Source: Bacteroidetes bacterium HLUCCA01 (lineage in GTDB: Bacteria > Bacteroidota > Rhodothermia > Balneolales > HLUCCA01). Taken from it: a DNA stretch of 64,000 bases. The stretch spans positions 1 to 64,000 of the forward strand of contig LIHN01000012.1 in assembly GCA_001314545.1 (NCBI GenBank), read 5' to 3'. The position numbers and the translations under genes are program-made. Positions 4,382-44,733 of this stretch are shown here, in pieces. The notes beneath the pieces were generated by a model. The model made no database searches. It had not been told where the DNA came from and worked only from the letters and a program-made list of their open reading frames with translations. Within the stretch, counting starts at the first letter, position 1. Every line of letters starts with the position of its first letter.

Positions 4382-4452
4382 ATTCATACCAGGTGGAGTC
4401 GGGTTACTTTTAGCATCAGATACTTTGTTTCAACGCTAACCTAACCCCTGCG

Positions 4453-4560
4453 CGAATGTCACCCATATCCATTTTCAGACAGGCTGCTGCCGGCACCGAT
4501 TTTAACCCGATCCCCGGGCGAATGACCCCCATATCCATTTTCAGGCGGGCTGCCGCCTTG
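4453..4560 (+). repeat. 66-bp direct repeat, about 1.6 copies, at the 5' end of a coding frame
   Basis: Two 39-bp segments starting at 4453 and 4519 (period 66) share CGAATG, CATATCCATTTTCAG and GGCTGC. Each encodes a near-identical peptide (MSPISIFRQAA and MTPISIFRRAA), and related C-rich sequence continues to about 4580. The repeat overlaps the annotated start of the next gene and makes that start doubtful. Confidence 0.7.
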
Positions 4561-5277
4561 AACCCGCCCCCTGCGCCAAAGTCACGCTCCTTCCCCGCGC
4601 TGCATACTGCGGTGCGCACCATCCTGCTGGCAGTCCTGCTGCTGGCCGCCGCCACAGCCGTCCAGGCCCAGAACCGCGAGCTGGGCTCGCTGAAAGGCTT
4701 CTCCTCGGCCTTTACCATAGGCGTGGGCAGTTTTTCAGCCAAAGGCAGTGACGACCAGCCCCAGCAGTTTCTGGTATCAACCCGGACCAAAAACGAAATG
4801 CAGTTCGGTCACACCCAGATCGGGGCGCTGATTATGTACGGAATCCGTGACGACCTCGGATTCTACGTGAACGGAAGCTGGGGATTTTTCGATGAAGACC
4901 TGAACAGCTACGGGTCTACTTTTAACCGCGACCTCGGGGTGCAATACCAGTACTTCGGCCTGGAAGACATGGGCCTGTCGTATTTCATCTTCCCGTATGT
5001 GCGCGCCGGACTATCGTCGATGACCATGAACGGTGCCTATTTCCGGCTGGTAGACGGTACGGCCCGTCGTGGCACCTTTGAGGGCAACGGTTTTCACCTG
5101 GCTCTCGGCGCCGATGTAGCCTTCAACGAATACGCCAGCGTGGGGGTCGACTACATGATCAAGCGGGTGAATCTGGAACCCGAGCGTTATCCGGCCCAGA
5201 CCTTCCCCAACACCCCGTTCAACCACGCCCTCATGCTGCACGTGAAGGTCAACGTCTCGAAATATCTGGACTACTGA
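4456..5277 (+). CDS. Outer-membrane beta-barrel protein; start uncertain
   Basis: The open frame gives 273 residues. A hydrophobic signal segment at about 53-72 (VRTILLAVLLLAAATAVQAQ) precedes a barrel-like domain with strands such as LGFYVNGSWGFF and YASVGVDYMIKRVN, and the end is KYLDY. The first 50 residues come from a short DNA repeat and are not typical of a secreted protein, so the true start may be the in-frame GTG at 4612 or another codon just before the signal segment. No clear ribosome-binding site decides between them. It resembles the OmpA/OmpW-like porin-fold proteins of Bacteroidota in general form only. It is transcribed away from the minus-strand receptor group. Confidence 0.7.
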   Translation: MSPISIFRQAAAGTDFNPIPGRMTPISIFRRAAALNPPPAPKSRSFPALHTAVRTILLAVLLLAAATAVQAQNRELGSLKGFSSAFTIGVGSFSAKGSDDQPQQFLVSTRTKNEMQFGHTQIGALIMYGIRDDLGFYVNGSWGFFDEDLNSYGSTFNRDLGVQYQYFGLEDMGLSYFIFPYVRAGLSSMTMNGAYFRLVDGTARRGTFEGNGFHLALGADVAFNEYASVGVDYMIKRVNLEPERYPAQTFPNTPFNHALMLHVKVNVSKYLDY

Positions 5278-5456
5278 GCCATTTCAGCATACCGGTTCCG
5301 TTTCAATCGGGTACCATATCGACCTGACGACGGCTTGCGGTACGCATAGAGCAGCTGCCGGGGGGCGATGCCGGCCAATCAACAGGCATGCTCAGCATGC
5401 CGGCACGGGTCCCCCACCGGTTCGGAACGGACGGGTGCCGGCCTCCATCGACCGTA

Positions 5457-7097: not shown

Positions 7098-7460
7098 GCA
7101 GAAGGGAACTAGAGATAAACATTAACGCAGGGACGAACAGAGGCGTAGGTGTGCGGTGCATGTGGTAATATCCGGAATTCATGGCTCAATGTGAAATTTG
7201 TGTATCGCTCCGTGTAAAAACGGCCTTAAATAGCTGGAAACACGAGTTGTAATCGGTTGACTGTCATGTACTTGGTGCCGGATGCATCCTGCCTGCAACA
7301 GGAACCGGAGAAGCGGTCCGGACCCCTCATCCGAAGCGTATTGCTGCCATGATGAAATTGTAAAATTGCGACCTTTCACATTTAGGATTAAGAAATCTTA
7401 ACCGATAACGGGTATGTACCACTGTGTGTCTTACTTAAGGCCTGCCACACTTGCAATCAC
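7098..7460. other. Intergenic region between divergent nuclease and kinase genes
   Basis: These 363 bp lie between two divergent genes and must hold both promoters. The part nearest the kinase gene (7350-7440) is more AT-rich. I see no conserved RNA, strong terminator or convincing consensus promoter. Confidence 0.5.
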
Positions 7461-10400
7461 GTGAAAATTAAAGACCCGAATACCATCAACTACAAACGGC
7501 TGTTCTCGCAGGCCGAGCGGTATGCCAATCTGGGCAGTTGGGAGGTGGACTTTACCACCGATGAGGTGACATGGTCTGACCAGTACTACCGGGTTTGCGG
7601 ATTTCAGCCCCGGGAAATCCGTCCCAGCATGGAAAAAACCCTGGCCATGGTACACCCCGACGATGCCGTTCAGGTACAGACCGAGTACGAACGGGCCCGT
7701 ACCGCAGGCAAGCCCTTTCATGTGGAATTCCGGCTGATCCGGGCCGATGGTGTGATGCGTCATGTGCTGGCGGAGGCCAATATTGAGCGGAATTCCGATG
7801 GTGCTCCGGCGCGTATGGTGGGCATTTTCATGGACATCCACGACCGCAAGGAAGTGGAGCTGAAGATGGAGATGCAGCAGCAACGCTACGAGGCGTTGAT
7901 GAAAAACGGCCTCGACGCCGCCGCCATCGTGCAGCACGACGGTGGCATGACCTATCTGTCGCCTTCCTGCGAGGGGATCTTCGGCTGGTCGGATATCGAC
8001 ACGCTGGACGTCACCCTGCTGGACATCGTCCATCCCGAAGACATGGAGTCGCTCACGCGAACCCTTCAGGATACCCTGGTCCGACCCGCGGAGGTCATTG
8101 AAATCGATCCCTTCCGCATCCGCCATAAAAACGGTTCCTGGATGTATCTGGAGGGCAAGATGGAGAATCTGCTGCACCTGCCCGCCGTGGAAGGCATTGT
8201 GTTCAATTTCAAAGACGGCAACAGCCGGCATGTACAGCAGGAACGCCGGCAGGTCATGGAGGAAATCACCGGATTTTTCAGCAATCCCAGGGCCACGGTC
8301 AACGACGCCCTCGGCGCAACACTGTCCAAACTCGGGGAAAGCGGCAAGTATAAACTACGGGAGGCCTGGATGGTGGCCCCCGGACGCGATTTCATTGAAC
8401 TGAAGGTCTTCGGCAAGGAAGAACCCAACGCCTCCACCTTCTACCGGGAAACCTCGAAATTCCGCCAGCTCAAACCGAATGAATGCGTGGCCGGTGCCGT
8501 GTGGAATGAAGGCAAACGACTCCTGGTCAACGATATTACCTCCGGCAACCGGTTCGTGCGCAAGCAGGTGACCGACACGCTGGGTGTACGGCGCGTCTGC
8601 GGCATCCCCATCCGCCACCTGGATGAAACCATCGGCGTGATGGTCATGGGCGTTGATGAAGAGACGCTGATTCCCAACCAGGAAATGGATTTCATGGAGG
8701 ATGTGGGCCGGACCATCGGCACGGAAATCCGCCGTCGCACGGCCGAAGACGACCTGAACGACCTGTTCGAGCTGGCCCCGGACCTGGTCACCCTGCTGGA
8801 TGAGGAAAATACGCTGATCCGGGTCAATCCCGCCTCCGCCCGCATTCTGGGCTACGTTCAGGACGACCTGCGGGGGCTTGCCCTCAGCGAAATGCTCCAT
8901 CCGGACGACCTTCCCGCAGCCCTGAAAAAACTGGACAAAGTTCGCGATAAAAACGTCACCATCGCTTTTGAAGCCCGGGTTCTTACCCGCACCGGCACCG
9001 TGTTGTGGATGGATTTCAATGCATCGGTATCGGCCGGAACCGGGCATACCTTTTTAATGGGCCGCGATATCACCCAGCGGCGGCAGCTGGAGTACCTGGT
9101 AGAGCAGGCCAGCAGGCTTTCCAGCATCGGAGCCTGGGAAATTGACGTACGTCGCGACGAGATGACCTGGTCGGATGTGGCCCGCGACATCTTCGGGGTT
9201 ACCCCTACCTTCACCCCCACCCTGCAGGGATTCATCAGCCTGGTGCGCCGGGGCGTATCCCGCGGCAAGATCAAGCATGTACTTGAAAAAGCACTGGAAG
9301 CCGGCCAGGGCTGGGACGCCGAGGTTGAAATCGTCACCGGTACCGGTCAAAGCAAATGGGTTCGCATCATAGGACAGGTAGATCTGACGGACAACGAACC
9401 GGTACGTGTGTATGGCAGCATCCAGGACATCCACGACCGTAAAATCGCGGAAATCACCGCCAGCGAAGTTTCGGAGGAGAAGGAGCTCATCCTTTCCAGC
9501 ATTTCCGATGCATTTTACGCCCTCGATGAAGAATGGCGCTTCGCCTATGTCAATCGTCGCGCCGAAGAAATTTTTGGTCGCTCCGCCAGCTTCCTGAATA
9601 CCAAGACCATCTGGGACATGCCCGGACACCACAACAATCCCACCCTTATCCCGGTCATGGAATATGTGCAGAAGCACCGTGTTCCGCGTACCGCCGAATA
9701 CTTTGATGAGAAGCTGGAAGCCTGGTTCGACCTGAGCATCTACCCCTATGGCAAGGGTGTTTCCGTGTATTTCCGCGATGTAACCGAACGGCGCAGGGTG
9801 GAAGCCGAGCTGCATGAACTCACCCGCAAGCTGGAAGACCGTGCCCGGGAGATGGCCCTGTCCAACGCCGAACTCGAGCAGTTTGCCTTTGTAGCCTCCC
9901 ACGACCTGCAGGAACCCCTCCGGATGATCACCGGGTTTATAGACCGACTGGAAAAACGCTACGGGGCCATGCTGGATGAACGGGGCAAGCGCTACATTCA
10001 CTTCGCCACCGACGCGGCCAAACGGATGCGGGAAATCATTCTGGATCTGCTGGAATTCTCGCGCATCGACCGTGAAGATGAACCCGTTGCCGAGGTCGAT
10101 GTAAATGCGCTGCTGGGTGAGCTGATGACCAGCAACAAACGCTATCTGGAGGACACCGGCACCTTCATGGAATTCGGTAAAATGCCGGTGATCATCGCCC
10201 AGCCCGAAGGTATACGGCGCGTATTTCAGTGCCTGATCAACAACGCGATCAAGTATACCCATAAACATACAACCGAGCCGCGGGTGAGCATCAGCTGGAG
10301 CGAAACTGAGAATAACTGGCAGTTTACGGTCAAAGACAACGGCATTGGCATCGCGCCCGAGCATCATGAGGAGATATTTGTCCTGTTCCGACGGCTGCAC

Positions 10401-22211: not shown

Positions 22212-22853
22212 CTACCAGCCTTCGCGACCGATAAGCGGCACAAATTTGAATCCGCTGAGGATTTCCTCCTGAAAGTCGTCCTCGCCCAAACGGGTGATAA
22301 CATGCATGTGCTGGGAGGAGGTGTCGCCCACAGGAATGACCAGCCGACCGCCGGGTGCCAGCTGCGATTTCAGGCTCTCAGGAACCACCGGCGCCCCGGC
22401 CGTGACCACAATCCCGTCATACGGGGCATAGGCGCTCCAGCCCAGCGTACCGTCATCACATTTGAGCATGGGCCGGTAGCCGAGCTCACGCAGATGCTCC
22501 CGCGAACGCTCGTGCAGGGGACGGTGCCGCTCAATACTGTACACATTCAGGCCGAGCTCGCACAACACCGCGCACTGATAGCCCGACCCGGTGCCGATTT
22601 CCAGCACTTTCTGTCCGGCCTTCAGGTCGAGGAGCTCGGTTTGTCGGGCCACGGTATACGGCTGAGAGATGGTCTGGTCCAGACCGATGGGCAGGGCGAT
22701 GTCCTCGTAAGAACGAATCCACAGAGCAGAGTCCACAAAGGTGTGCCGGGGAATGGTGCGGATGGCGCCAAGTACACGTTCATCCCTGATGCCCTTCTCT
22801 CGCAGAAGAGCGACCAGGGCGGTGCGTTGTTTCTGATAACGGTTGGATAGCAT
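22212..22853 (-). CDS. pcm: Protein-L-isoaspartate O-methyltransferase
   Basis: The 213-residue enzyme repairs isoaspartyl residues using S-adenosylmethionine. It has the SAM-binding glycine motif LEIGTGSGYQCAVL, the preceding ISQPYTVARQTELL segment and the late motif IVVTAGAPVVPESL, all standard for Pcm. The N-terminus (MLSNRYQKQRTALV, then IRDERVLGAIRTIPRH) matches the family from its first residues, so the start is well supported. The start lies inside the 3' end of the upstream membrane glycosyltransferase gene, giving an unusually long 74-nt out-of-frame overlap that implies coupled expression. Confidence 0.95.
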   Translation of the reverse strand: MLSNRYQKQRTALVALLREKGIRDERVLGAIRTIPRHTFVDSALWIRSYEDIALPIGLDQTISQPYTVARQTELLDLKAGQKVLEIGTGSGYQCAVLCELGLNVYSIERHRPLHERSREHLRELGYRPMLKCDDGTLGWSAYAPYDGIVVTAGAPVVPESLKSQLAPGGRLVIPVGDTSSQHMHVITRLGEDDFQEEILSGFKFVPLIGREGW

Positions 22854-24657
22854 GGGGGAATATACGCAAATACAACCCCGATGCCAGCACCACCATGAAC
22901 GGCATCAGGTACAAACGGAACCGGGCATACCCGCTGGGACCACCCAGAATCCACAGGTACAATACCGCGGCCACAAGCATGAGCACCAGCAGCGGATACC
23001 GCCGGCCCAGCCACCACGCACCGACCAGGCTCCCCATCGCGAAAACCCCCAGGAACAGCATGTAGGCGACCGCATAGACCACCAGCACCGGGTCCTCGCG
23101 CAGCAGAATACGCACCGTACCCAAAAGTCCCTCCCTCGACAACGTATTCGTCAGGCCGATCTTCGCATTGTCGGGCTCGCGGAAGGTCCGCGTAAAGACC
23201 AGCCTCCCCGGGTCCATCAACGTCACGACCATGCCCCGAACGATGGTACGGACGTACAGAAGCCGGTTTTCGGCGAGGATTTCCCGGGCGAGGGTGCGCT
23301 TGGCCTCCTCCTCCCCGGCGAAGGTCTCCAGCTGCGGGGTTCCGCCATAACGACGGGCGTACGCGTCGCGAATCCGCTGCTGGGCTTCCAGGTGAGTGAT
23401 TCCCTCGCGGGCGGCCAGCACGAAGGCGGCATGACCGGTAAGGATATTCTCGGCGGCGATGGAAGTGTACGCCAGGCTTCCGTGCTGCTGGTAGTTGCGA
23501 AGCTGCCAGCTGAAAATAAAGACCATCGCACCGGCAAGGTAGAGGGCCGACAGGGCGAGGGGACGCCGTTTGCCCGCACCCATATACCACAGCGCGACGG
23601 TCAGAGCCGGCAGGGCCAGCCAGGGCGCGTACAGGGTGATGGGCTTGAACCAGGTGGCCAGTCCGAGGGCGAGTCCGCCGAGCAGGAAGAGGCTCCAGAC
23701 GGGTAGTCGGTCGAGGAAGCCGGGGGACTCATTACGGGCCACCGCACGCTGCACGCCGTAAGCACCCTCCGTCGGCAAAGCGGCACCGGCACGCCGCAGG
23801 CCGGAAACTTCTGCAGGATGCCCTCCAGCCACCGCGCGCTGCACGCCGGAAACTTCCGAAGGATGTCCCCCAGCCACCGCGCGCTGCACGCCGGAAACTT
23901 CCGAAGGATGCCCTCCAGCCACCGCGCGCTGCACGCCGGAAACTTCCGAAGGATGTCCCCCAGCCACCGCACGCTGCACACCGTAAGCACCCTCCGTCGG
24001 CAAAGCGGCACCGGCACGCCGCAGGCCGGAAACTTCTGCAGGATGCCCTCCAGCCACCGCGCGCTGCACGCCTACATACACCGCCAGCACCGATGCCGTG
24101 AGCAGCAGCACGAACCAGGGCTCGGGAACCAGCTCCTTGGAATACATCCACCAGGCCGGATCCAGGGCGATAACCAGCAGCATCGGCCAGGCGCGATCGA
24201 GTTTCAGCCGACGCAGCAGTCCCAGCAGCAAGGCCAGAACCCCGCACATGGCCAGAGTGTTCAGCCCGAACAGCACCCACGGACCGGCCGCGGGTCCCAC
24301 GACCCCATACACGGCGGCCAACAGCAAGGGATAGCCCGGCGGACGAATCATATCGGCGAAGGGATTGGTATCGGCGCTGCCGTAGCCCGGCGACAAGTAC
24401 CGGCCGGTCTCCAGCATCGACAGGGCATACTGCTCGTACAGAGGGGAATCGCCGTTGTACAGGCGATGGGTGTCGGGCCAGACGAGCAGGGCCAGCAACA
24501 GCCGGGAAACCAGCACCACAGCAATGAGCACCATCAGCGGTCGCATCGACCCGAAAAACTGTGACACCCCTCGCGGAAGGAGACGTTTCCGACCGGGACC
24601 GTCAGTTGGGTCGGACGCATCGGAATGGAAGTCATACTCGGAGGGTTTTTCAGCCAT
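22780..24657 (-). CDS. GT39/PMT-like membrane glycosyltransferase with a 15-residue repeat insert
   Basis: The 625-residue inner-membrane protein resembles ArnT/PMT-type transferases, which use polyprenyl-phosphate sugars. The first loop carries the acidic motif YNGDSPLYEQYALSM and is followed by RPPGYPLLLAAVYGV. Between helices, residues 197-301 are seven back-to-back 15-residue units of two kinds (VQRAVAGGHPSEVSG and LRRAGAALPTEGAYG), encoded by a 45-bp DNA tandem array and not part of the family fold. The C-terminal 24 residues overlap pcm. Upstream neighbours are a Wzi-like barrel gene and galE, so it probably decorates a surface glycan or lipid. The acceptor is unknown. Confidence 0.8.
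   Translation of the reverse strand: MAEKPSEYDFHSDASDPTDGPGRKRLLPRGVSQFFGSMRPLMVLIAVVLVSRLLLALLVWPDTHRLYNGDSPLYEQYALSMLETGRYLSPGYGSADTNPFADMIRPPGYPLLLAAVYGVVGPAAGPWVLFGLNTLAMCGVLALLLGLLRRLKLDRAWPMLLVIALDPAWWMYSKELVPEPWFVLLLTASVLAVYVGVQRAVAGGHPAEVSGLRRAGAALPTEGAYGVQRAVAGGHPSEVSGVQRAVAGGHPSEVSGVQRAVAGGHPSEVSGVQRAVAGGHPAEVSGLRRAGAALPTEGAYGVQRAVARNESPGFLDRLPVWSLFLLGGLALGLATWFKPITLYAPWLALPALTVALWYMGAGKRRPLALSALYLAGAMVFIFSWQLRNYQQHGSLAYTSIAAENILTGHAAFVLAAREGITHLEAQQRIRDAYARRYGGTPQLETFAGEEEAKRTLAREILAENRLLYVRTIVRGMVVTLMDPGRLVFTRTFREPDNAKIGLTNTLSREGLLGTVRILLREDPVLVVYAVAYMLFLGVFAMGSLVGAWWLGRRYPLLVLMLVAAVLYLWILGGPSGYARFRLYLMPFMVVLASGLYLRIFPHAIQPLSETTHRPGRSSAREGHQG
23755..24069 (-). repeat. 45-bp tandem array, seven units, in frame inside the GT39-like gene
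   Basis: In coding order the units are A-B-A'-A'-A'-A-B, then a partial A. A encodes VQRAVAGGHP(A/S)EVSG and B encodes LRRAGAALPTEGAYG; both are exactly 45 bp, so reading frame is kept. Near-identical DNA copies indicate recent expansion. Confidence 0.95.
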
Positions 24658-24666
24658 TCCTCCCTC

Positions 24667-26739
24667 CTAAAACCGGTACAGCAGCTGCAGCTGCAGGTGG
24701 GTATTCCACACATCGTAGCCGATATACTCGCCGGGGATCTCCGTGAGCTCCTTGTACTGATAATTCAGCGACTGTATGAAACTCAGCCGACCGCTCACGG
24801 TGAGTCGCTGCCAGGTAAACTGCCCGTCCAGCCCGAGGTTGACATCGGCGTAATGCCGGTACCGGGTGGTGGTGAACATGATGTAATACAAATCGTTGTT
24901 GTAGATGGTACGCTCCACGTACGCCCCGATGCGGGTGGTCCCGCGCAGGTAATCGAGCCCGAGGTACTGGGCATTGCTGCCCGGACCAATACCCGCACCC
25001 AGAATCTGCCCCCGGTGGGTATACCCATGGCGCACATGAGGATGCACATACCAGGTAGGATAATCGCGCACCCGCCAGGAGTTGGTTTTCTCCAGCTGGG
25101 TGAACTCCGAGCCGATGCGTACGAAGTGTCCGGGACTGCCCAGCGGGAAGAGCTTGTTCATGCCCAGAATCCAGGCCATGCCGTGCTCCGGAAGCTCGGT
25201 GAAATCGCGCCAGGAAGCCGGACGCGCATTGCGACCCCACTCGCCATAGACTTCCAGCTGGTCGCCGGGGGCTACGTACCGGATGTAGAGGGCAAATTTG
25301 TCGTCAAATTTGTGCCGGAGATCGGGCTCCAGCTGCTCCAGCCGGGTTTCAGGGATGTCTTCGTAGGGCGTGCGGAAAAAGGAAAACAGCGCCTGATCCC
25401 ATCGTTTGATGTCTTCGGAGTAGGCCAGAATGGTCCTGCCGGCACCCACGGTAAGCCCGGGCGTCCATCGGGGCGACCAGCTGAAGGCGAAACCCTGCAG
25501 CAGCCGCCAGTCGTCCGGTCGGGCGATGTAGTTCATCGGCAGGGTGTTGCCAAACCGGCGCGGCGGACGATGATCCATGCCTGAGGCCTCCAGCCGACCC
25601 CAGAACGCCTGAAATTCCACGTCCCCCGCAGGCGTGCGAAGCGGTCGTTCACTGCGGATGGTAGCGTGGAGGAAGCCCTCGGCGTTGTTGGTCATCAGCA
25701 GGGCGTTGCGCTGGCCCGGTCCCCACCAGAACGATCGGGTGGATACACCCGCAGCAATTCCGCGGTGCACGAGCAGCGCTTCGGAATTGCCGGGCACCAG
25801 GCGGAGGTAGGGAGCGTTTCGATAGTAATTAGGTCTGTCTATGCGGTTATACAAATATTGATAGTGATACCGCCAGACAAAATCCTCCAGTTCAAGGTCC
25901 AACGTCTCGTAGCGGGCACTTTCGTTGTAGAAAACCGTGGGATTCAGCCGGAGGTGCAGGGGACCAAACCGGGCACTGGCCTGAACCGACCACAGGCTGG
26001 TGAGTCCGCGGGACGGGAAGATGGCTTCGAGATTGGTGCCGTGGGCCAATTTGCTGTTGTACACGGTGGCCGTGCGGATATGCTCGAGGCGTACATTAAA
26101 TCGTGCACTGCCGGCGCGAAGCCGGGTGTCAGGAAGTACCTGCAGCAAGGCCGACCGCCGCGCGGAATATTCCTGCAGGTCGCGACGATACTGTATGCGC
26201 GCTTCGCGAAGCGACCGGTGCCATCGAAGTCGCGCGCCCAGTTGCCATAGCGACGGTCGGGGACCAGCCGATGCCGGTACGTTTCCGGGTGCATGCAGGG
26301 TCAGCGCTGAGGGACGAATGATGAATCCGTTGCGAAGCGGGAGGTCGCCGCTGAGTTGTCCGTACCGCGCCAGCAGCAGATTGGCATCGTGCAGGGCGGG
26401 ATTTGGATCTGGCTGCAGTCCGCCGCTGCGGTCACGATCGCCGTCGGGTCGCAGCCGTTGTTCCTGCCCCGTTACCCCGACCACGTTCGGATAGGCCGTC
26501 GGCGGAGCAACAGCACAATCTGCATCCCGGAAGGTACCGGGAACCGTCGGCGCAGCAACGGCACGATCTGCATCCCGGAAAGTGCCGGGAACCGTCGCCC
26601 CCGTTGTATTTGTCCATGCGAATAAACAAATACCAAGAATGCCACCGCGAAACCATGCCTGAAATCCATCAAAAGATGCGGGTGGTTTCACGGGAGGGTT
26701 CCTCAATTCGCTTCGGGCGCGGTGAGGGTTTGCTGCCAC
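24667..26739 (-). CDS. Wzi-like capsule-assembly outer-membrane barrel
   Basis: The frame encodes 690 residues ending in YRF, a barrel-type terminus. The middle carries the Wzi-family hallmark FWWGPGQRNALLMTNNAEGF and later barrel strands; the helical-bundle part at about 105-160 (LHDANLLLARYGQLSGDLPL) also fits. Wzi-like proteins are surface barrels associated with capsule or exopolysaccharide attachment or export. The N-terminal 80 residues hold a hydrophobic segment (GGILGICLFAWTN) that may be the signal anchor, followed by two 16-residue repeats encoded by a 48-bp DNA repeat. The start overlaps the 3' end of galE by 37 bp and the stop is 9 bp before the GT39-like gene. A later start is possible. 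Confidence 0.8.
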   Translation of the reverse strand: MAANPHRARSELRNPPVKPPASFDGFQAWFRGGILGICLFAWTNTTGATVPGTFRDADRAVAAPTVPGTFRDADCAVAPPTAYPNVVGVTGQEQRLRPDGDRDRSGGLQPDPNPALHDANLLLARYGQLSGDLPLRNGFIIRPSALTLHAPGNVPASAGPRPSLWQLGARLRWHRSLREARIQYRRDLQEYSARRSALLQVLPDTRLRAGSARFNVRLEHIRTATVYNSKLAHGTNLEAIFPSRGLTSLWSVQASARFGPLHLRLNPTVFYNESARYETLDLELEDFVWRYHYQYLYNRIDRPNYYRNAPYLRLVPGNSEALLVHRGIAAGVSTRSFWWGPGQRNALLMTNNAEGFLHATIRSERPLRTPAGDVEFQAFWGRLEASGMDHRPPRRFGNTLPMNYIARPDDWRLLQGFAFSWSPRWTPGLTVGAGRTILAYSEDIKRWDQALFSFFRTPYEDIPETRLEQLEPDLRHKFDDKFALYIRYVAPGDQLEVYGEWGRNARPASWRDFTELPEHGMAWILGMNKLFPLGSPGHFVRIGSEFTQLEKTNSWRVRDYPTWYVHPHVRHGYTHRGQILGAGIGPGSNAQYLGLDYLRGTTRIGAYVERTIYNNDLYYIMFTTTRYRHYADVNLGLDGQFTWQRLTVSGRLSFIQSLNYQYKELTEIPGEYIGYDVWNTHLQLQLLYRF
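26501..26596 (-). repeat. 48-bp direct repeat, two copies, in frame in the Wzi-like gene
   Basis: Units 26501-26548 and 26549-26596 differ at a handful of positions and encode TVPGTFRDADRAVAAP and TVPGTFRDADCAVAPP. The 48-bp period keeps the frame. Confidence 0.9.
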
Positions 26740-27866
26740 TTCCAGGCGCTGGAGGTCATTTCATCGAGGGGTCGCTCCGCCTTCCAGCCCAGCACCTGCT
26801 CGGCCTTGTCGGTCACGGCCCAGATTTTCTCAATATCCCCCTCGCGCCGAGGCGCCAGCTCGTAATGCAGCTTCACCCCGGTAGTCCGCTCGAACGACTC
26901 GATGACTTCCATGACGGTATGCCCGTTTCCGGTGCCCAGATTGAAATAATCCACCACATGTCCCTGGGTAGAAAGCCACTCCAGGGCGCGCACATGGGCA
27001 ATAGCCAGGTCCACCACGTGAATGTAGTCGCGGATGGCCGTACCGTCGCGGGTTTCATAGTCGGAGCCGAAGACCTTGAGCTTCTCCCGCCATCCGGCCG
27101 CCGTCTGGGTGATAAAGGGCATCAGATTACCGGGAACGCCTTTGGGCAGCTCCCCGATTTTCGCCGAGGGATGCGCCCCGACCGGGTTGAAATACCGCAG
27201 AATGGCCGTGGAAACCGTGGGTGTGAGTCGGGTGAACTCATCCAGCATCATCTCCGAAATCAGCTTGGAGTTGCCGTACGGGGTCATCGACCGCGTCGTG
27301 GGCGTGGCTTCCGTCACGGGAACCACCTCGGGCTCGCCGTACACCGTACACGAGGAGCTGAATACCAGATACGGCACCGCATAGCGCTCCACCGCCCGCA
27401 TAAGATTGACCACCCCGGAGATGTTGTTGTCGAAGTAGGTAACGGGCTGTTTCAGGCTCTCGGGAACCGATTTCTTGGCCGCGAAGTGGATGATGCCCTG
27501 AATGCCGGTGTCCGAACCGACCTGCTCAGGGTGCGCATCGTGGCCGGATACGAAACCATCGGCCGTACCACGGGCTCCGGCAGCGCCGCTTTGGGTGCCC
27601 CGGACCGTCGACTGGCCGACCGAAGTCGCACCCCCGCCTTCCATACAACCCTCGTTGCGGAACACCGCATCCAGCCCCGACTGATCCAGGATATCGACCT
27701 CGTAAAACGTGATGGGCTGCCCGGTGAGCTCTTCGAGCGCCTGATGCACCTCCGCATTGGAATTGGAAAGATCGTCGATGATGACCACCTCGTGACCGGC
27801 CTCGCACAGGGCCGTTACCGTGTGCGACCCGATGTAGCCAAGTCCGCCGGTTACCAGAATTTTCAT
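26703..27866 (-). CDS. galE: UDP-glucose 4-epimerase with a low-complexity insertion
   Basis: The 387-residue SDR enzyme interconverts UDP-glucose and UDP-galactose (or the N-acetyl forms). It has the NAD-binding VTGGLGYIGSHT at the start, SSSCTVYG with the catalytic Ser, the YxxxK pair in TPYGNSK, and the C-terminal substrate loop ending LGWKAERPLDEM. Ordinary GalE is about 330-340 residues; here some 49 residues rich in Gly, Ser, Ala and Thr (about 72-120, DNA about 27507-27653) are inserted between helix and strand just before GIQGIIHFAAKKSV. The remaining family sequence is intact, so the enzyme is probably active. It lies 57 bp after the M15-like gene and overlaps the Wzi-like gene downstream. 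Confidence 0.93.
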   Translation of the reverse strand: MKILVTGGLGYIGSHTVTALCEAGHEVVIIDDLSNSNAEVHQALEELTGQPITFYEVDILDQSGLDAVFRNEGCMEGGGATSVGQSTVRGTQSGAAGARGTADGFVSGHDAHPEQVGSDTGIQGIIHFAAKKSVPESLKQPVTYFDNNISGVVNLMRAVERYAVPYLVFSSSCTVYGEPEVVPVTEATPTTRSMTPYGNSKLISEMMLDEFTRLTPTVSTAILRYFNPVGAHPSAKIGELPKGVPGNLMPFITQTAAGWREKLKVFGSDYETRDGTAIRDYIHVVDLAIAHVRALEWLSTQGHVVDYFNLGTGNGHTVMEVIESFERTTGVKLHYELAPRREGDIEKIWAVTDKAEQVLGWKAERPLDEMTSSAWKWQQTLTAPEAN

Positions 27867-28668: not shown

Positions 28669-30519
28669 CTACCGGGTGACGATGCCCGGAAACAGCCGGT
28701 AGCGCAGGGTCAGTCGCAGATGCACATTCAGCGGATTGCGGTAGCGGAGCTCGTCTACAACCAGGCTGCCGTCGCCGGCCTCGATGGGCTCGCCGGTGGC
28801 CGCATCGGTGGCCAGACGAATATAATGCTGATTGCGGGCTTTTACCAGCCATACCCCCGCCTGAAATTCCAGTTGCCGACCCCAGAACGACCGACTCGCA
28901 TACCCGCCGGCCGTCATTTCAAGCTCCTGCCGCGCATCGGGATAGTCGCCCTCGACCAGTCGGAGGTAGGTAACGCGGTTCTTGCGGGTGAACTCGCCCA
29001 TGAACCCGGCCTGCCAGACCTCGCCCGACCGCTGCACGGAGGCAAACCAGCTGGTACCCGCCAGCCCGACAAACGATCCCAGTCCGCGACCAAGGTGAGC
29101 AAGGCCCCCGACACCGTGGCTGTAAAAACCCAGGTCTGCCGGAGACTGCCCGCGCACCCAGAGCCGAACCCGACTCGGCATGGTATTACTGGCGTCCATG
29201 ATTTCGGCACTAAGCGACCACGCACTGCCGGGATCGACCGCCGGACGAAACACTTTATGCATCCCCAACAGATACGCCCGGGCATGATTGGGCTCCAGAT
29301 AAAAATCGCGGATGTCCGTGGCATGATCGGTACGACCAAACTCGCCGTAGAAGGTGACTTCACTCACGGGAAAATGCCAGGAAAAGTACACCGAGGCACG
29401 CTGATCGTCCGGAGCAGAACCATCGCCCAGTCCCGAATCGCCCGGCTCCAGCTTCGATTTCTGAAACGGCTGAAACAGCGGGAAATAATCGCTGCGCGAA
29501 TCCAGGTCCCGGGCACGAATATGAAAGGCACGAATCAACCCCACATGCAGTCCCGGGGCAAAACGAGGCTCAAAATCCACAACCAGGGCCGTGAGATAGC
29601 GCCAATCGTCGCTGTAGGACGCCTCGTTATAGTACGAGCGCTCCAGCCGACCGGCAATATACTGAAATTGCAGCCCGCCGATGCCGGTTTGCAGAGGACG
29701 ATTGGTGTGCAGGGTCAGATGATTGAAGCCCGGAGCGTTGTTGCTCATAAAAATACTGTGCCGCCTGCCCGGACCCCACCACAAATTCTGATTACTCACC
29801 CCCGCCGAGAGCGGACCCAGCATGAGTTTCGCCCAGGTTTCGCCCCAGTACCAGCGATTCACCGCAGCGGAGTCGATGCGCACCGGCGCGTCGAAACTTC
29901 CGTGGGTGCTGATCCATGCTCCGCGGGCTGGCTGCGGAAGCAGGTCGCGCGCCGTGGCAAAATCACGGTTCTCAGCCGTAACCCAGACCGGCGCCAGCTG
30001 CACGTCAAAAATCAGCCATCGCAGGGAAAATCCGCCGGTAGCAGCCTGCGCAACCCCCCTGCCCGACCAGGCCGGACCGTTATTGGGCGACCAGACCCGG
30101 TCGTTGTTGTATTGCGTGACCGAGGTGAACGGCAACAGGTAAACTTCGGGTCGGGCGAACTCCCGCAACCAGTAACGCGAACCCTGCCAGGGCTGATCGG
30201 CACGGGTGAGGCCCAGTCGACCCAGGGTTTGCCGGTGGAGGGAGGCCCGGAGCGGTTCCGGCAGCAGCAGGTGACCCAGCTCCCGGGCGTTGCTTCGGTG
30301 ACGGTGCAGCTGTTGCTCCGGATGAATGACAAACACCCGCGTCAGGGGCATGGGCGCCCCGGTAAACGACCAGAGCATCGGCGCTGAGGGCGTACGGGAA
30401 TCCGTTGATACAACGGAAGCCCGCGACTGCGCCAGAACCTCGCCGCTGAACCACAGCCCGACCAGCGCCGGCATCGCGGCGAAGCACATCCATCGTCGAA
30501 AATTGTGAAAAGCCGGCAT
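28669..30519 (-). CDS. Wzi-like outer-membrane barrel protein (second copy)
   Basis: The preferred ATG at 30519 gives 616 residues starting MPAFHNFRRWMCFAAMPALV, a signal peptide cleaved near VLAQ. The open frame extends to 30624, but those 35 codons begin with the start of a toxin gene and are treated separately. The Wzi hallmark NLWWGPGRRHSIFMSNNAPG is present, flanked by barrel strands; the C-terminus (LTLRYRLFPGIVTR) is not the usual aromatic end. It shares its motif with the barrel encoded 2 kb downstream, so the two may handle the same or alternative polymers. Confidence 0.82.
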   Translation of the reverse strand: MPAFHNFRRWMCFAAMPALVGLWFSGEVLAQSRASVVSTDSRTPSAPMLWSFTGAPMPLTRVFVIHPEQQLHRHRSNARELGHLLLPEPLRASLHRQTLGRLGLTRADQPWQGSRYWLREFARPEVYLLPFTSVTQYNNDRVWSPNNGPAWSGRGVAQAATGGFSLRWLIFDVQLAPVWVTAENRDFATARDLLPQPARGAWISTHGSFDAPVRIDSAAVNRWYWGETWAKLMLGPLSAGVSNQNLWWGPGRRHSIFMSNNAPGFNHLTLHTNRPLQTGIGGLQFQYIAGRLERSYYNEASYSDDWRYLTALVVDFEPRFAPGLHVGLIRAFHIRARDLDSRSDYFPLFQPFQKSKLEPGDSGLGDGSAPDDQRASVYFSWHFPVSEVTFYGEFGRTDHATDIRDFYLEPNHARAYLLGMHKVFRPAVDPGSAWSLSAEIMDASNTMPSRVRLWVRGQSPADLGFYSHGVGGLAHLGRGLGSFVGLAGTSWFASVQRSGEVWQAGFMGEFTRKNRVTYLRLVEGDYPDARQELEMTAGGYASRSFWGRQLEFQAGVWLVKARNQHYIRLATDAATGEPIEAGDGSLVVDELRYRNPLNVHLRLTLRYRLFPGIVTR

Positions 30520-30546
30520 GAAAAAAGGAAAATAGTGGACAATTTC

Positions 30547-30624
30547 TATCTGATTTCCATACCACTCATAGGCCTTAACGACGTCTTCCCGGGCTTTTAG
30601 CGTAATTTTCAATGGAAAAGCCAT
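30547..30624 (-). pseudogene. ParE/RelE-type toxin stub fused to the following frame
   Basis: The first 26 codons of the long frame encode MAFPLKITLKAREDVVKAYEW and YGNQ, the N-terminus usual for ParE-like toxins (strand 1 and the start of helix 1). Conserved catalytic and C-terminal parts are missing; the reading frame then runs by chance into the Wzi-like gene. The stub lies 6 bp after an intact antitoxin gene, the normal toxin position, so this is a toxin-antitoxin pair whose toxin was deleted. Confidence 0.75.
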
Positions 30625-36491: not shown

Positions 36492-36980
36492 ATGAGTACT
36501 ACCAAAACATTTGACCCTGGAAAAAGTATCCGTAGAGCAAGACGAAGTAAAGTACAGGGACAGAAATGGAGTATTGCCATTGCCAAAACCGAGTTCGTTT
36601 GGTCAACGAAAATGGACCGGGTAGATATTATTCGCAAAAAGCTACCCTACGAAGCAATCGAGGTCGTCAGTTTTCGGGCAAACCTACCAGTTAAACGGGT
36701 TTTACAACTACTGGACATGCCACAAACTACCTACAATAAAAAAAGAAAAGCTAAAGCCTTGCTAAGCAGCAGAGACAGCGAACTGGTGTTAGTGCTATCG
36801 GAATTACTCGATTTCGGGCTATCTGTCTTCAACAGTGAGGAAGAAAAGTTTTATCGATGGTTAAAGAAGCCAAACATTTCTTTAGGAAATGTAACACCAG
36901 AGAGCCTTTTCGACTCGCTGACTGGTATTCAGGAAGTCAAAAATAGCTTAACTCGGCTTGAATTTGGGAATATGGCCTGA
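36492..36980 (+). CDS. Xre/MbcA/ParS-type antitoxin (DUF2384)
   Basis: The 162-residue antitoxin has an N-terminal Xre-like DNA-binding region (about 55-105; FRANLPVKRVLQLLDMPQTT) and a C-terminal toxin-binding DUF2384 region (about 110-160; FNSEEEKFYRWLKKPNISLG, then TPESLFDSLTGIQEV). This is the usual partner of RES-domain toxins. Its stop codon overlaps the toxin start (TGATG), a coupled arrangement. The pair is AT-rich compared with the exosortase and glycosyltransferase genes on either side and has its own promoter with palindromes. Confidence 0.9.
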   Translation: MSTTKTFDPGKSIRRARRSKVQGQKWSIAIAKTEFVWSTKMDRVDIIRKKLPYEAIEVVSFRANLPVKRVLQLLDMPQTTYNKKRKAKALLSSRDSELVLVLSELLDFGLSVFNSEEEKFYRWLKKPNISLGNVTPESLFDSLTGIQEVKNSLTRLEFGNMA

Positions 36981-37462
36981 TGCGGGTATTTCGTATTGAG
37001 CGGGAAAAATATCTAAAAACCACATTACGTGGGGTAGGGGCGGCATTAACAGATGGATTCCGATGGAATAGTCTGAATACCTACCTGGTGTATACATCCG
37101 AATCACGAGCTCTTGCTACATTGGAAATTGCAGTTCATCTGGACCTAAGCGAAGATCTTCCCACAGATCGATTTTATGTGGAAATAGATATTCCAGACTC
37201 CATTGAAATTGCTGAGTTACGGCTTGAAGACCTACCAAATGGTTGGGACGCAAAACCTCCTATACTTGAAACACAATATATTGGAGATGATTTTGTACGT
37301 GGACATAGCGCCGCTGTGCTTAAAGTTCCAAGCAGTATAGTTCCATTCGAATACAACTATCTGATAAATCCCGGTCATCGTGACGCAAGCAAAATTTCGG
37401 TAGTTTCGAAAACACCTATGGTTTTCGATCAAAGAATAGGTCAATCAAAGCATCGTCGCTAA
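36980..37462 (+). CDS. RES-domain toxin
   Basis: The 160-residue protein has the Arg, Glu and Ser signature of RES toxins, in FRIERE near the start, YTSESRALATLEIAVH at about 34-49 and VPSSIVPFEYNYLINPGH at about 115-132. RES toxins (MbcT, ParT and relatives) degrade NAD+ or modify nucleotide-using enzymes, halting growth until neutralised. Length, motifs and gene order with a DUF2384 antitoxin all fit a complete type II pair. No frameshift or truncation is visible. Confidence 0.92.
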   Translation: MRVFRIEREKYLKTTLRGVGAALTDGFRWNSLNTYLVYTSESRALATLEIAVHLDLSEDLPTDRFYVEIDIPDSIEIAELRLEDLPNGWDAKPPILETQYIGDDFVRGHSAAVLKVPSSIVPFEYNYLINPGHRDASKISVVSKTPMVFDQRIGQSKHRR

Positions 37463-40657: not shown

Positions 40658-42415
40658 ATGTCCCTATCCCGACTCCTGCTGCTCACCATCCTCGCCCTGA
40701 CCGCCCTGACCACCACGGTTCTCGGCCAGGCCTCCCTCGTGCCGGCCAACCACCCCGTGTACGACTGGCTGTACAACCAGCGCGTGGCCGGAAACCTGCC
40801 GGCCTACGAGTACGAAGTACTGCCCCTGACCCGGCGCGATATCACCCGCCACCTGAACTACCTCCGCGCCAACGCCTCCCTCTCCCGCGCCCAGCAGCGC
40901 AGCCTGGACTCCTACCTGCGCGAATTCGATGTGGCCCGAATCTCCCCCGATGACGGGCACTCCGCCGCGGTCTTCTACGACACGCTCGACTGGGGCGGCG
41001 GCTCCATAGCCGACCGGGCACGGACCTACCTCGGCGATACCGAGAAACACGCGCTGATCATGCGCTCGCGCGAGGGATTCCTCCTGCTGGACGGCGGCAT
41101 CGGACTGCGCGCCTTTGTGGTGCGTGACGGCGACCTCGCCCAGCAGACCCTCAGTCAGCTCACCGACATCCGCGTTATCGGGAGCTACGGCGAAAACATG
41201 GGCTTCCACGGGGAAATCAACCTCGCCAGTCCCGTCCTGGGCAGCGGAGCATCCATTTTCGCCTACGACGGATTCTATTTCTATAATTTCATCAACAAAG
41301 AGCGCTTCGCCGGCAACGACCTGGCCTCCGTCACCTACTCCCTGGTCCACCGCGAGGGCTACGCCACCGTGCAGTTCGGCAACACCATGGCCTTCAGCAT
41401 TGGTCGGGGCAACCTGAAAATAGGCACCGGCGAAGAAGACAACTTCTGGTTTTCGCGCAACGCTGCGCCCCTGGAATGGCTCCGGCTCGACATCGGGAAC
41501 CGGTGGATGCGCTACCAGCGTCTGCACGGGGCCATGAGCTGGCCCGCCAGCATCATCCGCCAGCAAGACGATCCCCTGCTGATCACCCGCAACGCCCCCC
41601 AGCGCTTCGTGGTCATGCAGTCCGGCATCGTGCGACCCTTCCCGTGGTTTCATTTTGGGGTGTTCGAGATGATCAACTACTCCAATCGCGGCATGGAAAT
41701 CGCCTACCTCAACCCCATCAACATCCTCTCGTTTGCCGAGCGCGACCTGCAGGACCAGGACAACGGCTGGGCCGGGGTCTACGGCGTACTGCGTCCCCTG
41801 CGCGGACTGGAGCTCTACTCCGAGCTGGTGGTAGACGACCTGTTCACCGTCAGCGAAATCATCCGTCGCAAGCGACCCGATGTAAGCCGGTTTGCCCGAC
41901 GCTATGGCGCACAGTGGGTTCCCGGGGCCGACTGGCGGCTCTTTGGCGAATACGAGCGGATTGATCCCTTCGTGTACTCCCATCCGTACGCGCTCAACAG
42001 CCACACCAACTACGATGTCTCCCTGGGCAGCCAGCTTGAGCCCAACTCCGACCGGCTCACGGCGGGAGTGCGGTGGTTCGGGCTGCCCCGCTCCTGGGTT
42101 TCGGTCAAGGTCCGGTACGTGCGGAACGGCCGGAGTACCCGCGATGCCGACGGCAACCTGATCTTTTACGCCGGGGAAGATGTGAATCGCGGTCGACGTA
42201 TCAACCATTTGCTGCGACCCGACGAGCGATACGAAGAAAGCTTCCTGTTTCTGGACGGCGATTTACACCGCTGGGCGGGCCTGGAGCTGCACGCCAGCTG
42301 GGAGCCACGGCGAGCCTGGGTGCTGAGCAGCCGGCTGGACTACCGCCACATGCTCGAAGGCGACCAACTCGCCAACCGCACCGTCTTCTGGCTGGATATG
42401 CGGGTGGGGTTCTGA
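40658..42415 (+). CDS. Wzi-like outer-membrane barrel protein (third copy)
   Basis: The 585-residue protein has a signal peptide (MSLSRLLLLTILALTALTTT, ending VLGQ), an N-terminal segment typical of capsule-assembly Wzi proteins (VPANHPVYDWLYNQRVAGNL) and a barrel with motifs such as EEDNFWFSRNAAPLEWLRLD. It ends RTVFWLDMRVGF, a good barrel terminus. The last 36 bp of the gene are repeated, with only silent changes, 1334 bp downstream beyond an AT-rich two-gene cassette. It is transcribed divergently from the GT2 gene. A surface-polysaccharide role is inferred from family and context. Confidence 0.8.
   Translation: MSLSRLLLLTILALTALTTTVLGQASLVPANHPVYDWLYNQRVAGNLPAYEYEVLPLTRRDITRHLNYLRANASLSRAQQRSLDSYLREFDVARISPDDGHSAAVFYDTLDWGGGSIADRARTYLGDTEKHALIMRSREGFLLLDGGIGLRAFVVRDGDLAQQTLSQLTDIRVIGSYGENMGFHGEINLASPVLGSGASIFAYDGFYFYNFINKERFAGNDLASVTYSLVHREGYATVQFGNTMAFSIGRGNLKIGTGEEDNFWFSRNAAPLEWLRLDIGNRWMRYQRLHGAMSWPASIIRQQDDPLLITRNAPQRFVVMQSGIVRPFPWFHFGVFEMINYSNRGMEIAYLNPINILSFAERDLQDQDNGWAGVYGVLRPLRGLELYSELVVDDLFTVSEIIRRKRPDVSRFARRYGAQWVPGADWRLFGEYERIDPFVYSHPYALNSHTNYDVSLGSQLEPNSDRLTAGVRWFGLPRSWVSVKVRYVRNGRSTRDADGNLIFYAGEDVNRGRRINHLLRPDERYEESFLFLDGDLHRWAGLELHASWEPRRAWVLSSRLDYRHMLEGDQLANRTVFWLDMRVGF
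42376..42411 (+). repeat. 36-bp direct repeat, left copy (end of Wzi-like gene)
   Basis: From CCGCACCGTCTT to GGGTGGGGTT, identical to 43710-43745 except for one C/T. Together the copies bracket the proteinase cassette. Confidence 0.9.
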
Positions 42416-42434
42416 GCCAGAACGCCTTGTTCCG

Positions 42435-42641
42435 CTACATTGATTTTAAAATCAGTTTATGTTGGGCCGCTTTATCAGATAACGAGAGTAGATTGTTTCC
42501 CCTTTTTTGAGCAAGTCCAAGCTTGACAAGCTCATCAAATTCATTGGAGATACGCACATAACGCTCTACGTCTGCATCATCCTTAAATTTGGCACTGGCC
42601 TGTGCCAGACCCTCTTTTAGTCGTTTCTCAATGGAATTCAT
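42435..42641 (-). CDS. Small protein coupled to the SDH-type proteinase
   Basis: The 68-residue protein (MNSIEKRLKEGLAQASAKF..., ending LILKSM) is highly charged, probably helical, with no signal peptide. I do not recognise a family. Its start overlaps the end of the upstream proteinase gene by 14 nt, so the two are almost certainly translated together. It could be an adaptor, regulator or immunity-like partner of the proteinase; nothing in the sequence decides. Its AT-rich composition matches the proteinase gene and differs from the flanking genes. Confidence 0.7.
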   Translation of the reverse strand: MNSIEKRLKEGLAQASAKFKDDADVERYVRISNEFDELVKLGLAQKRGNNLLSLSDKAAQHKLILKSM

Positions 42642-43521
42642 AAGCTAACCAATTAAACGTATTTCTCGTTTGTATCAATATACGAAATCGACGGCTCAGG
42701 ACATAGTCTGACACCAGATCATAATAATCTCTTATTAACGCCCGCCTGTCAATATTCGCACTATAGTCGTCAATTTCCAGTCTCAATTCCTTCAAAGCTT
42801 CGATATTGATAGGCCTTCCGTGTGATTTCCACTTATTGTTATTACTAAGCTGATCTGCAATTTCCTTTGCCCGTTCAATTTTTTCATCGTCTGTTACCTT
42901 TTGACCAACCTTCTTTGGATCGGAACGATGTTTTGACCAATTTTTAAATTTATACTTAACCAGCCATTTTTCGAGCAGGGCTATGGTTAAGTCTTTCGCC
43001 TGTTCATACCCTCTAAGCTCAGCTAAATCAAAATCTTTCAGAATAATGAATTCAGCTTGAGACAACGTGTTGTTCTGAGCTTTCTCAATTAATTGGTTGA
43101 CTTTGTCAAGGTAACCAAGTGCAGCAACCATACGCCCTTCCTTGTTTTGAATCTGCGGGTCTATGGGACCAAGTACTGATGAATAGTCCATCAATATATT
43201 ATCACCACTCATACAAAAAATGGTACCTGCACTATAGGCATAGTCTGGAACTATAAAATTCACTTCACTGTAATTGTGACGAAGAATATTGACAAAACGC
43301 TCCACTACAGTTGCACTACCACCACTAGTTGTTAAAACGATGTAGATTTTATCTTTTTTTTGTGGGTCACTGGCTAAGTCTTCAATTATCTTTAAAAAAA
43401 GATTTTCGCCTCCTTCAAAAGGTCCAAAGTACGTTAAAAAATCTGCCTCAAAATGTTTCTCCAATGCTAATAGACGTTCCGACAATAATCTATGTATCTG
43501 ATCATCAAGTACTGGCTTCAT
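42628..43521 (-). CDS. SDH-family Clp-fold serine proteinase (SppA-like)
   Basis: The 297-residue cytoplasmic protein belongs to the serine dehydrogenase proteinase type of ClpP/crotonase fold (PF01972). It shows an oxyanion strand (LTTSGGSATVVERF at 63-76), the probable nucleophile Ser97 in DYAYSAGTIF and SSVLGPIDPQIQ at 114-125, the family signature before the general-base Lys region. No signal peptide or helix is seen, unlike SppA proper. It forms a two-gene unit with a 68-residue protein, is AT-rich and lies between 36-bp direct repeats. Its substrate is unknown; a defence or stress function is possible but unproven. Confidence 0.85.
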   Translation of the reverse strand: MKPVLDDQIHRLLSERLLALEKHFEADFLTYFGPFEGGENLFLKIIEDLASDPQKKDKIYIVLTTSGGSATVVERFVNILRHNYSEVNFIVPDYAYSAGTIFCMSGDNILMDYSSVLGPIDPQIQNKEGRMVAALGYLDKVNQLIEKAQNNTLSQAEFIILKDFDLAELRGYEQAKDLTIALLEKWLVKYKFKNWSKHRSDPKKVGQKVTDDEKIERAKEIADQLSNNNKWKSHGRPINIEALKELRLEIDDYSANIDRRALIRDYYDLVSDYVLSRRFRILIQTRNTFNWLAYEFH

Positions 43522-43709
43522 AAAGGACGTTTACAATTAATTTGTTATGATTTCTTTGTGATAAGCTGGTCTCCAGCCCAAAAAAGCAGAAATACACGAA
43601 CGCCAATAGTTGGTACGTTTTGCTTAGCGTACATGATCTGTATATTCAATAGAGTCCGTCAACCCGGAAATCTTACATTTTTTGTCACAAAATTCACAAC
43701 GAAAGCCAG

Positions 43710-43745
43710 CCGCACCGTCTTTTGGCTGGATATGCGGGTGGGGTT
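43710..43745 (+). repeat. 36-bp direct repeat, right copy
   Basis: It repeats the end of the Wzi-like gene and in frame would encode RTVFWLDMRVGF with a TAA stop at 43747. Differences from the left copy (TTC to TTT twice, TGA to TAA) are all synonymous. Confidence 0.9.
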
Positions 43746-43755
43746 TTAAAATAAA

Positions 43756-44733
43756 TCACTCTACAAGTGCCTTCTGCACCACTTCCGCCACCACCGCATG
43801 GCCGGTCGCATTCCAGTGCCCGTCGGTCGGGAAGTAGTGCGAGGGATCCAGCACCTCGGCCAGGTCCACTACCGCAAACCCCAGCCCACGAACCCCGCGC
43901 ACATACGCCTGATGGATACGCCGCCACTCGGCCGACTGTGACCCCAGCCAGTAGCTCTTCGGCGGAGCGACCACAACCACCACCGCCCCAGCACGACCTT
44001 CCAGCACCCTGCCGGTCTGCGCCACCGACGAGGCAATAACTGACGCATCGTACCGCACCGGAAACCCTTCTTCGACGGATGCCGCCCTACGTTCAGCCAG
44101 ATATCCGCTGACTACCGGCATATTCCACACCAGGTACCGCCCGGCCTGATACAAGGCCAACTGCGTACTCAGGCGAAACCGCAGTGCAGCCACCCAACCC
44201 GTGTGCGGCGTATGCGCCGGAGCTACCGACTCGTAATCAAACAAATCATTGCCTGTAAACACCTGCAGCACCACACCGGCCGAGTCCGGCACCCCCAGAT
44301 CCCGGGCATAGTCCAGTAACCTCCCGTACCCGACCAGCTGGGTTGGCGAGCTCAGATTAAACACCCGCGCCCCCGGAAGCAGGGAATCCAGCCTGGATGA
44401 AACCCGTACATGCTCATCCACCCCGAAACCAAACCCGAACGAATCCCCCACATACAGCCAGTCGCCGGAGCGGGCCTCACGCACATCCCCCACATCCCGA
44501 AGACCGAGCGCACTAAACGTTACCTCCACATCAAAGTCGCCCGCATTATGCCGATGACGGTACGTTTCCCCGGGCAGTCCGAGGGGCACCTGCCACGGGT
44601 TCTGACTGTAGAACACCAGCTGAGTAGCAGGATTCAACTGCGGGAAAAACGCCCGAATCGCCACTTCGGCCAGCGCCAGTGAGGCCAGTGCTAACCCCAA
44701 AACCAACACCCCATAAAATGCCCATTGTTTCAT
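43756..44733 (-). CDS. SGNH/GDSL-type hydrolase, membrane-anchored or secreted
   Basis: The 325-residue protein starts with an uncleaved or cleaved signal (FYGVLVLGLALASLALAEVA), followed by an SGNH domain: block I GDSFGFGFGVD with the nucleophile Ser, block III QVFTGNDLFDY, and block V FPTDGHWNATGH with catalytic Asp and His. Such proteins add or remove acyl groups on extracellular polysaccharides. Position among glycan genes suggests tailoring of a surface polymer. It begins 107 bp after the stop of the upstream four-helix protein gene in the same direction. Confidence 0.87.
   Translation of the reverse strand: MKQWAFYGVLVLGLALASLALAEVAIRAFFPQLNPATQLVFYSQNPWQVPLGLPGETYRHRHNAGDFDVEVTFSALGLRDVGDVREARSGDWLYVGDSFGFGFGVDEHVRVSSRLDSLLPGARVFNLSSPTQLVGYGRLLDYARDLGVPDSAGVVLQVFTGNDLFDYESVAPAHTPHTGWVAALRFRLSTQLALYQAGRYLVWNMPVVSGYLAERRAASVEEGFPVRYDASVIASSVAQTGRVLEGRAGAVVVVVAPPKSYWLGSQSAEWRRIHQAYVRGVRGLGFAVVDLAEVLDPSHYFPTDGHWNATGHAVVAEVVQKALVE

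What the first reader, a model, noticed from the sequence alone, without database searches (positions are those of the whole stretch)
42376..43745. Two-gene proteinase cassette bracketed by a 36-bp direct repeat derived from the end of a Wzi-like gene
The last 36 bp of the Wzi-like gene reappear 1334 bp downstream with one mismatch, and the next bases (TTC/TGA against TTT/TAA) again differ only silently. Between them lies an AT-rich, oppositely oriented pair: an SDH-family serine proteinase and a coupled 68-residue protein. Silent-only differences mean the right copy evolved as coding sequence in a related gene, so the cassette probably arrived with a homologous gene end, as integrating elements or recombination-borne defence cassettes do. 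No integrase gene is present. The proteinase plus small protein may be an undescribed stress or anti-phage unit; that function is inference.
Basis: partly seen in the sequence, partly recalled or inferred. Interest (0 to 1): 0.78.

Follow-up and report, generated by a model that had tools for sequence, protein, structure and literature searches.

The report
Mobile protease-plus-partner gene pair
A foreign two-gene unit, a ClpP-like protease plus a tiny partner protein that turns up in many bacterial phyla and sits beside the repressor gene of E. coli prophages where phage-exclusion genes usually lie, has been inserted behind a capsule gene and is bracketed by a repeat of that gene's end; it is probably an undescribed phage-exclusion or toxin-type system.

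Summary
The last 45 bp of the Wzi-like gene (42371-42415) recur at 43705-43749 with four differences. Between them lies an AT-rich (38% against 61-64% G+C), oppositely oriented pair: an SDH-type, ClpP-fold protease and a coupled 68-residue protein. "Silent-only" is wrong: one of the four differences changes N to S, and 3 of 4 silent changes are expected by chance 9% of the time.

The larger finding is the pair itself. In 80 related loci from about 15 phyla the protease is followed, in nearly every case and often overlapping, by a 52-77-residue protein with an N-terminal helical part and a Y-x-L motif near its end (72 of 81 proteins; shuffled mean 1). No Pfam, NCBIfam, PHROGs or PADLOC model covers the small protein. 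The pair is sporadic (13 of 394 genomes of the phylum), groups with distant Bacteroidota, and occurs on plasmids, in phages, after a tRNA gene and probably as an integron cassette. In E. coli prophages it sits directly behind the cI repressor, before the terminator that follows rexB in lambda, which is the rexAB exclusion slot.

Best reading: a horizontally moving phage-exclusion or toxin-immunity module, left here by a recombination event at a gene end. Function is inferred; no integrase was found.

The parts
40658..42415 (+). Wzi-like outer-membrane gene (585 aa), intact; its 3' end is the left repeat
   Evidence: PF14052 E=1.5e-06, just below cut-off; full-length relatives of 29-46% identity in 9 other genomes of the order and a partial match in one more
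42371..42415 (+). left copy of the 45-bp direct repeat (last 14 codons plus stop of the Wzi-like gene)
42435..42641 (-). 68-aa small partner protein, helical N part plus KRGNNLL (variant of the RG-Y-N-L motif); no family model
42628..43521 (-). SDH-type ClpP-fold serine proteinase, 297 aa; invariant GG67-68, S97-A-G-T, H234; C-terminal helical domain
   Evidence: PF01972; invariant columns; AlphaFold pLDDT 92.6, Foldseek hits SppA and ClpP
43522..43704 (.). AT-rich (36%) upstream region of the pair; 43649-43705 is 86% like a stretch upstream of an Rpn-type nuclease gene elsewhere in the genome (nuclease named by eye), the likeness ending where the right repeat begins
43705..43749 (+). right copy of the 45-bp direct repeat (gene-end scar, with stop codon TAA)
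43756..44733 (-). flanking SGNH/GDSL-type esterase gene (61% G+C), not part of the cassette
   Evidence: absent from 12 relatives

Best explanation
The insert is a horizontally acquired, self-sufficient two-gene module: an SDH-type ClpP-fold serine protease and a co-translated small partner. Its most likely role is phage exclusion or abortive infection. The small protein would bind the protease, probably through its conserved Y-x-L tail, and hold it inactive or direct it. Infection would upset that balance and the protease would cut an essential host or phage protein. It reached this place by a recombination event using the 3' end of a Wzi-like gene: the incoming DNA carried or matched that end, so the Wzi gene stayed whole and a second 45-bp gene end was left on the far side. 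Shown: the pair, its conservation and coupling, foreign composition and phylogeny, the repeat, the prophage cI-adjacent location of relatives, an invariant Ser in a ClpP fold. Inferred: the exclusion function, inhibition by the small protein, the trigger, and the kind of recombination.
For: 80 SDH loci in about 15 phyla, almost all with the small gene within about 25 nt of the SDH stop or overlapping it. Motif in 72 of 81 small proteins against a shuffled mean of 1.05, maximum 4 (the motifs were written after seeing the sequences). 82 intact pairs, and no intact SDH shown to lack a small gene (the single candidate, L090, lies at a contig end and one search did list a 62-aa ORF there). Tree: the window SDH sits inside a Bacteroidota group with 100/99 support and phyla interleave. 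13 of 394 genomes of the phylum. E. coli: 17 of 5,426 genomes; in all 8 pair-bearing loci inspected the pair lies directly downstream of a cI repressor (one 53-aa gene between in two), with different repressors and two prophage types; the terminator region after it matches lambda at the end of rexB. Rhizobium plasmid: pair beside a multi-ubiquitin/E2 and E1/JAB operon. Similar insertion anatomy in L035 and L043.
Against: No defence assay exists in what I could search. PADLOC has no model that matches well, and neighbours of the pair are not clearly enriched in defence genes. Two phage types carry the pair between head genes, where maturation proteases lie. Direct repeats bracketing the pair occur in only 5 of 80 other loci against 1.7 expected, and two of those look like dispersed repeats. 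The fused AlphaFold model gives low confidence for the small protein's tail.
Confidence: 0.55

Rival explanations
1. Toxin-antitoxin (addiction) module: the protease is a toxin, the small protein its antidote, and spread is by post-segregational stabilisation, with phage defence at most a by-product.
For: Two short coupled genes, patchy spread, plasmid, prophage and probable integron homes; broken SDH genes with an intact small gene occur, as do loci where SDH is deleted and the small gene kept, while no intact SDH without a small gene was found. A Res-Xre toxin pair sits 5 kb away in the same locus.
Against: The asymmetry is not significant given that the search began from SDH and that the SDH gene is four times longer; the small protein lacks any known antitoxin domain; the order is protease first.
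Confidence: 0.25
2. Phage head-maturation protease with a scaffold-like partner, captured from phages and now domesticated or decaying.
For: Weak hits to ClpP-related head maturation proteases; in L107 and L105 the pair lies between minor-head and scaffold genes.
Against: In L105 the pair is antisense to the structural genes; in E. coli prophages it is in the immunity region; the scores are far below the curated cut-offs; the small protein matches no scaffold family.
Confidence: 0.08
3. Ordinary stress or quality-control protease of the host.
For: SDH/ClpP/SppA fold.
Against: Sporadic distribution, foreign composition, pseudogenes, mobile contexts.
Confidence: 0.05
4. About the repeat only: it is not an insertion scar of this cassette but the relic of a second, tandem Wzi-like gene that was mostly replaced at the place where the pair entered.
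For: Other genes in the window look Wzi-like by eye (24667-26739, 28669-30624); likeness to another locus begins immediately left of the right repeat.
Against: No further Wzi-like coding sequence precedes the right copy; only 45 bp is kept, including the stop codon.
Confidence: 0.3

Closest known systems
SDH-type (ClpP-like) serine proteinase family PF01972 / NF047768
   Same: Fold and active-site region; passes the Pfam gathering score (68.7 against 31.3 bits)
   Different: Far below the NCBI equivalog cut-off (72.7 against 250 bits), as are the E. coli and other relatives tested; has a conserved C-terminal helical domain and a near-constant small partner that no model describes
Lambda RexA-RexB exclusion system
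   Same: Two-gene unit; in E. coli prophages in the same slot between cI and the terminator at the end of rexB
   Different: Proteins unlike in kind: a ClpP-fold protease and a 56-aa protein in place of a DNA-binding sensor and a membrane channel (the last from general knowledge)
Type II toxin-antitoxin pairs
   Same: Small, coupled, mobile, frequently decaying
   Different: No antitoxin DNA-binding domain, protease as the large component, no toxicity data
cis-mobilizable elements (CIMEs: segments flanked by attL/attR but without recombination genes; from general knowledge)
   Same: Short DNA with direct repeats derived from a gene end and no integrase
   Different: No related integrative element with the same site was found

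Membership tests
SDH_protease PF01972 | profile score above the gathering threshold | tested here: met
   68.7 bits against 31.3
SDH_protease PF01972 | catalytic Ser in the ClpP/SppA crossover fold | tested here: met
   S97 invariant in 64 sequences; model pLDDT 92.6, Foldseek to SppA and ClpP; activity itself not tested
NF047768 Clp_like_SDH equivalog | score above the curated cut-off | tested here: not met
   72.7 of 250 bits; relatives 52.9-69.8
RexAB-type exclusion system | location downstream of a prophage cI repressor | tested here: met
   for E. coli relatives only (repressor domains); not for the window copy
RexAB-type exclusion system | RexA/RexB homologous proteins | tested here: not met
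   no such family among Pfam, NCBIfam, PHROGs or PADLOC hits
Integrase-borne integrative element | site-specific recombinase gene inside the repeats | tested here: not met
   only two genes between the repeats
Integrase-borne integrative element | direct repeats (att sites) derived from a gene 3' end | tested here: met
Integron gene cassette | attC recombination site after the gene(s) | tested here: not met
   only 19 nt between the small gene's stop and the Wzi stop; attC-like sequences flank the pair in L031 instead, seen by eye and not recovered by my two automatic scans
Defence-island system | neighbours enriched in defence genes | tested here: inconclusive
   half of the near neighbours against a far control, counts of models not of genes
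Toxin-antitoxin system | toxicity of one gene, neutralised by the other | not testable with these tools
   needs an expression assay

The most novel reading that the evidence does not exclude
The pair is a new, widespread protease-based phage-exclusion system in which a small protein with a conserved Y-x-L tail plugs or steers a ClpP-like protease. It moves as a minimal 1.2-1.7 kb unit without its own integrase into the 3' ends of genes, tRNA genes and integrons, using recombinases of others.
Probability: 0.2. Interest if true: 0.8.

Novelty: new variant of a known kind. Interest (0 to 1): 0.6.

Why it matters
An SDH-type protease with a conserved small partner appears across many phyla, and in E. 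coli prophages in the slot of the classic Rex exclusion genes, yet I found no description of the pair in the open-access papers searched and no family model for the small protein. A natural E. coli version in ordinary lambdoid prophages makes the exclusion hypothesis directly testable in laboratory strains with standard phages.

Tried and rejected
Integron cassette at this place: rejected, no room for an attC. Other copies of the gene end in 128 other genomes of the order or in viral contigs: none. Empty site in relatives: not possible, the Wzi gene and the SGNH gene are both absent from the same-genus genomes. Automatic attC detection: two scans found nothing even in L031 and L137, where attC-like palindromes are visible by eye, so those scans are uninformative. 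Defence-island test: PADLOC summaries count models rather than genes, and one half exceeded the size limit. Solved relatives by sequence: none of significance. Fused protease-partner AlphaFold model (stop read as Gly in L020): the small protein folds as helices at pLDDT about 75-82, tail below 70, no confident docking. Literature for SDH proteinases in defence: nothing relevant.

Full report
Observation. The 45-bp end of the Wzi-like gene recurs 1334 bp downstream with four differences. One difference is not silent (AAC to AGC, N to S); 3 of 4 silent changes would occur by chance with P = 0.09 among transitions. The cassette between the copies is AT-rich (38.2% G+C) against 63.5% and 61.2% in its neighbours. 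No other copy of the repeat exists in this genome or in 128 other genomes of the order, and no viral contig has the degenerate gene-end pattern. The repeat is therefore real and specific to this locus.

The proteins. The large gene is an SDH-type ClpP-fold protease (PF01972 5.7e-19; PHROG 11747 2.4e-56) but well below the NCBI equivalog cut-off. Across 64 homologues S97, the GG at 67-68, H234 and other positions are invariant. The AlphaFold model is confident (pLDDT 92.6), and its best solved matches are SppA and ClpP; among viral proteins the best matches are SDH proteinases of giant viruses. A helical C-terminal domain follows the ClpP-fold core. The small protein has no match above a cut-off in any of the four libraries.

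The pair is the unit. A scan of the genome collection gave 80 loci. The SDH gene is followed by a small ORF, mostly within about 25 nt or overlapping. The small proteins are 52-77 aa and share a Y-x-L-type motif towards the C terminus in three variants (RG-Y-N-L; Y-S-L-P-x-x-D-T-I-G; Y-x-L-x-x-P-F): 72 of 81 proteins, against 1.05 on average and at most 4 in shuffled versions. The patterns were chosen after reading the sequences, so this measures consistency rather than an independent test. Members scanned from several groups have no Pfam or NCBIfam model over its cut-off.

It moves. The window SDH lies within a well-supported group of Bacteroidota sequences (100/99), closest to Cyclobacteriaceae and Chitinophagales MAGs at up to 78% identity, and phyla are interleaved in the tree; MAG binning errors may account for some of this. 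In the window's own order only a remnant and distant matches exist: G001 of the same genus has a stop-containing remnant with a degraded small gene at another place. In the phylum 13 of 394 genomes have it, several with stops inside the protease gene. Homes seen elsewhere: plasmids, phage contigs between head genes, once antisense, directly behind tRNA-Leu with a 41-bp repeat of part of the tRNA (L043), and between attC-like sites in a planctomycete contig (L031, read by eye).

E. coli prophages. A plasmid-borne lambdoid prophage and several chromosomal prophages carry the pair directly behind the cI repressor (repressor domains confirmed in one). The sequence immediately after the pair, containing the terminator, is the one at the end of rexB in lambda and in many other prophages. 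17 of 5,426 genomes have most of the pair. In two inspected genomes the protease is gone while the small gene remains behind cI, and in one the protease is frameshifted. Genes downstream of cI are a recognised exclusion slot: rexAB in lambda and a RexAB-type defence system in P. putida (PMC12894663), and a cI gene was used to locate a defence hotspot in Vibrionales (PMC9122126). This is the main reason for preferring a phage-exclusion role.

How it got here. In L035 an intact aminotransferase-like gene is convergent with the pair, and a 3' fragment of a homologous gene lies beyond it; a 110-bp patch is 95% identical while another aligned stretch nearer the gene's end is 77%. That is the same arrangement as in the window and suggests recombination at a shared gene end, with the donor end completing the gene and the resident end left behind, or integration of a circle. 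In L043 the right-hand copy lacks the tRNA's last bases, so it is not a textbook attR. Repeats bracket the pair in 5 of 80 other loci against 1.7 expected from control intervals (P about 0.03), and two of the five look like dispersed repeats, so recurrence is suggestive only. No recombinase is encoded in the cassette; the genome has several tyrosine recombinases, one of them integron-like, but nothing ties them to this site. A relic of a tandem Wzi-like gene remains possible.

Verdict. The finding is real and its reading largely sound, apart from the silent-only argument and the defence-island expectation. The lasting content is a conserved, mobile protease-small protein pair found in an exclusion slot of E. 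coli prophages. Function is inferred, not shown.

Noticed in passing
window 36492-37462 (+): A second AT-rich (42%) two-gene insert in the same polysaccharide locus: Xre/MbcA/ParS antitoxin and RES-domain toxin.
   Followed up: partly
G000:C14 (locus L137) 4206-8433: Integron-integrase-like gene (218 bits, below the 265 cut-off) divergent from several hypothetical genes with an attC-like palindrome near 5803-5930; similar cores at C11:105625 and C3:90919.
   Followed up: partly
window 43681-43705, G000:C13:853-877, G000:C9:53325-53349: A shared 20-25-mer...CACAAATTTCACAACGAAAG, at three places, with likeness ending at the same base each time; possible promoter or element end.
   Followed up: partly
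window 22780-24657, 24667-26739, 26703-27866: Short in-frame peptide repeats or inserts inside coding genes (for example GVQRAVAGGHPSEVS, VPGTFRDAD), as if small repeats had been inserted into ORFs.
   Followed up: no
L110 5027-9052 (Rhizobium gallicum plasmid): The SDH pair directly follows a multi-ubiquitin/E2 gene, an E1/JAB gene and a DUF6527 gene.
   Followed up: no
L105 and L107 (viral contigs): The pair lies between minor-head and scaffold genes, in L105 antisense to them (gene names read by eye).
   Followed up: partly
BFVD hits of the SDH model: Giant viruses (Mimivirus LCMiAC01, Hyperionvirus, Indivirus) carry proteins named SDH proteinase with the closest overall fold.
   Followed up: no
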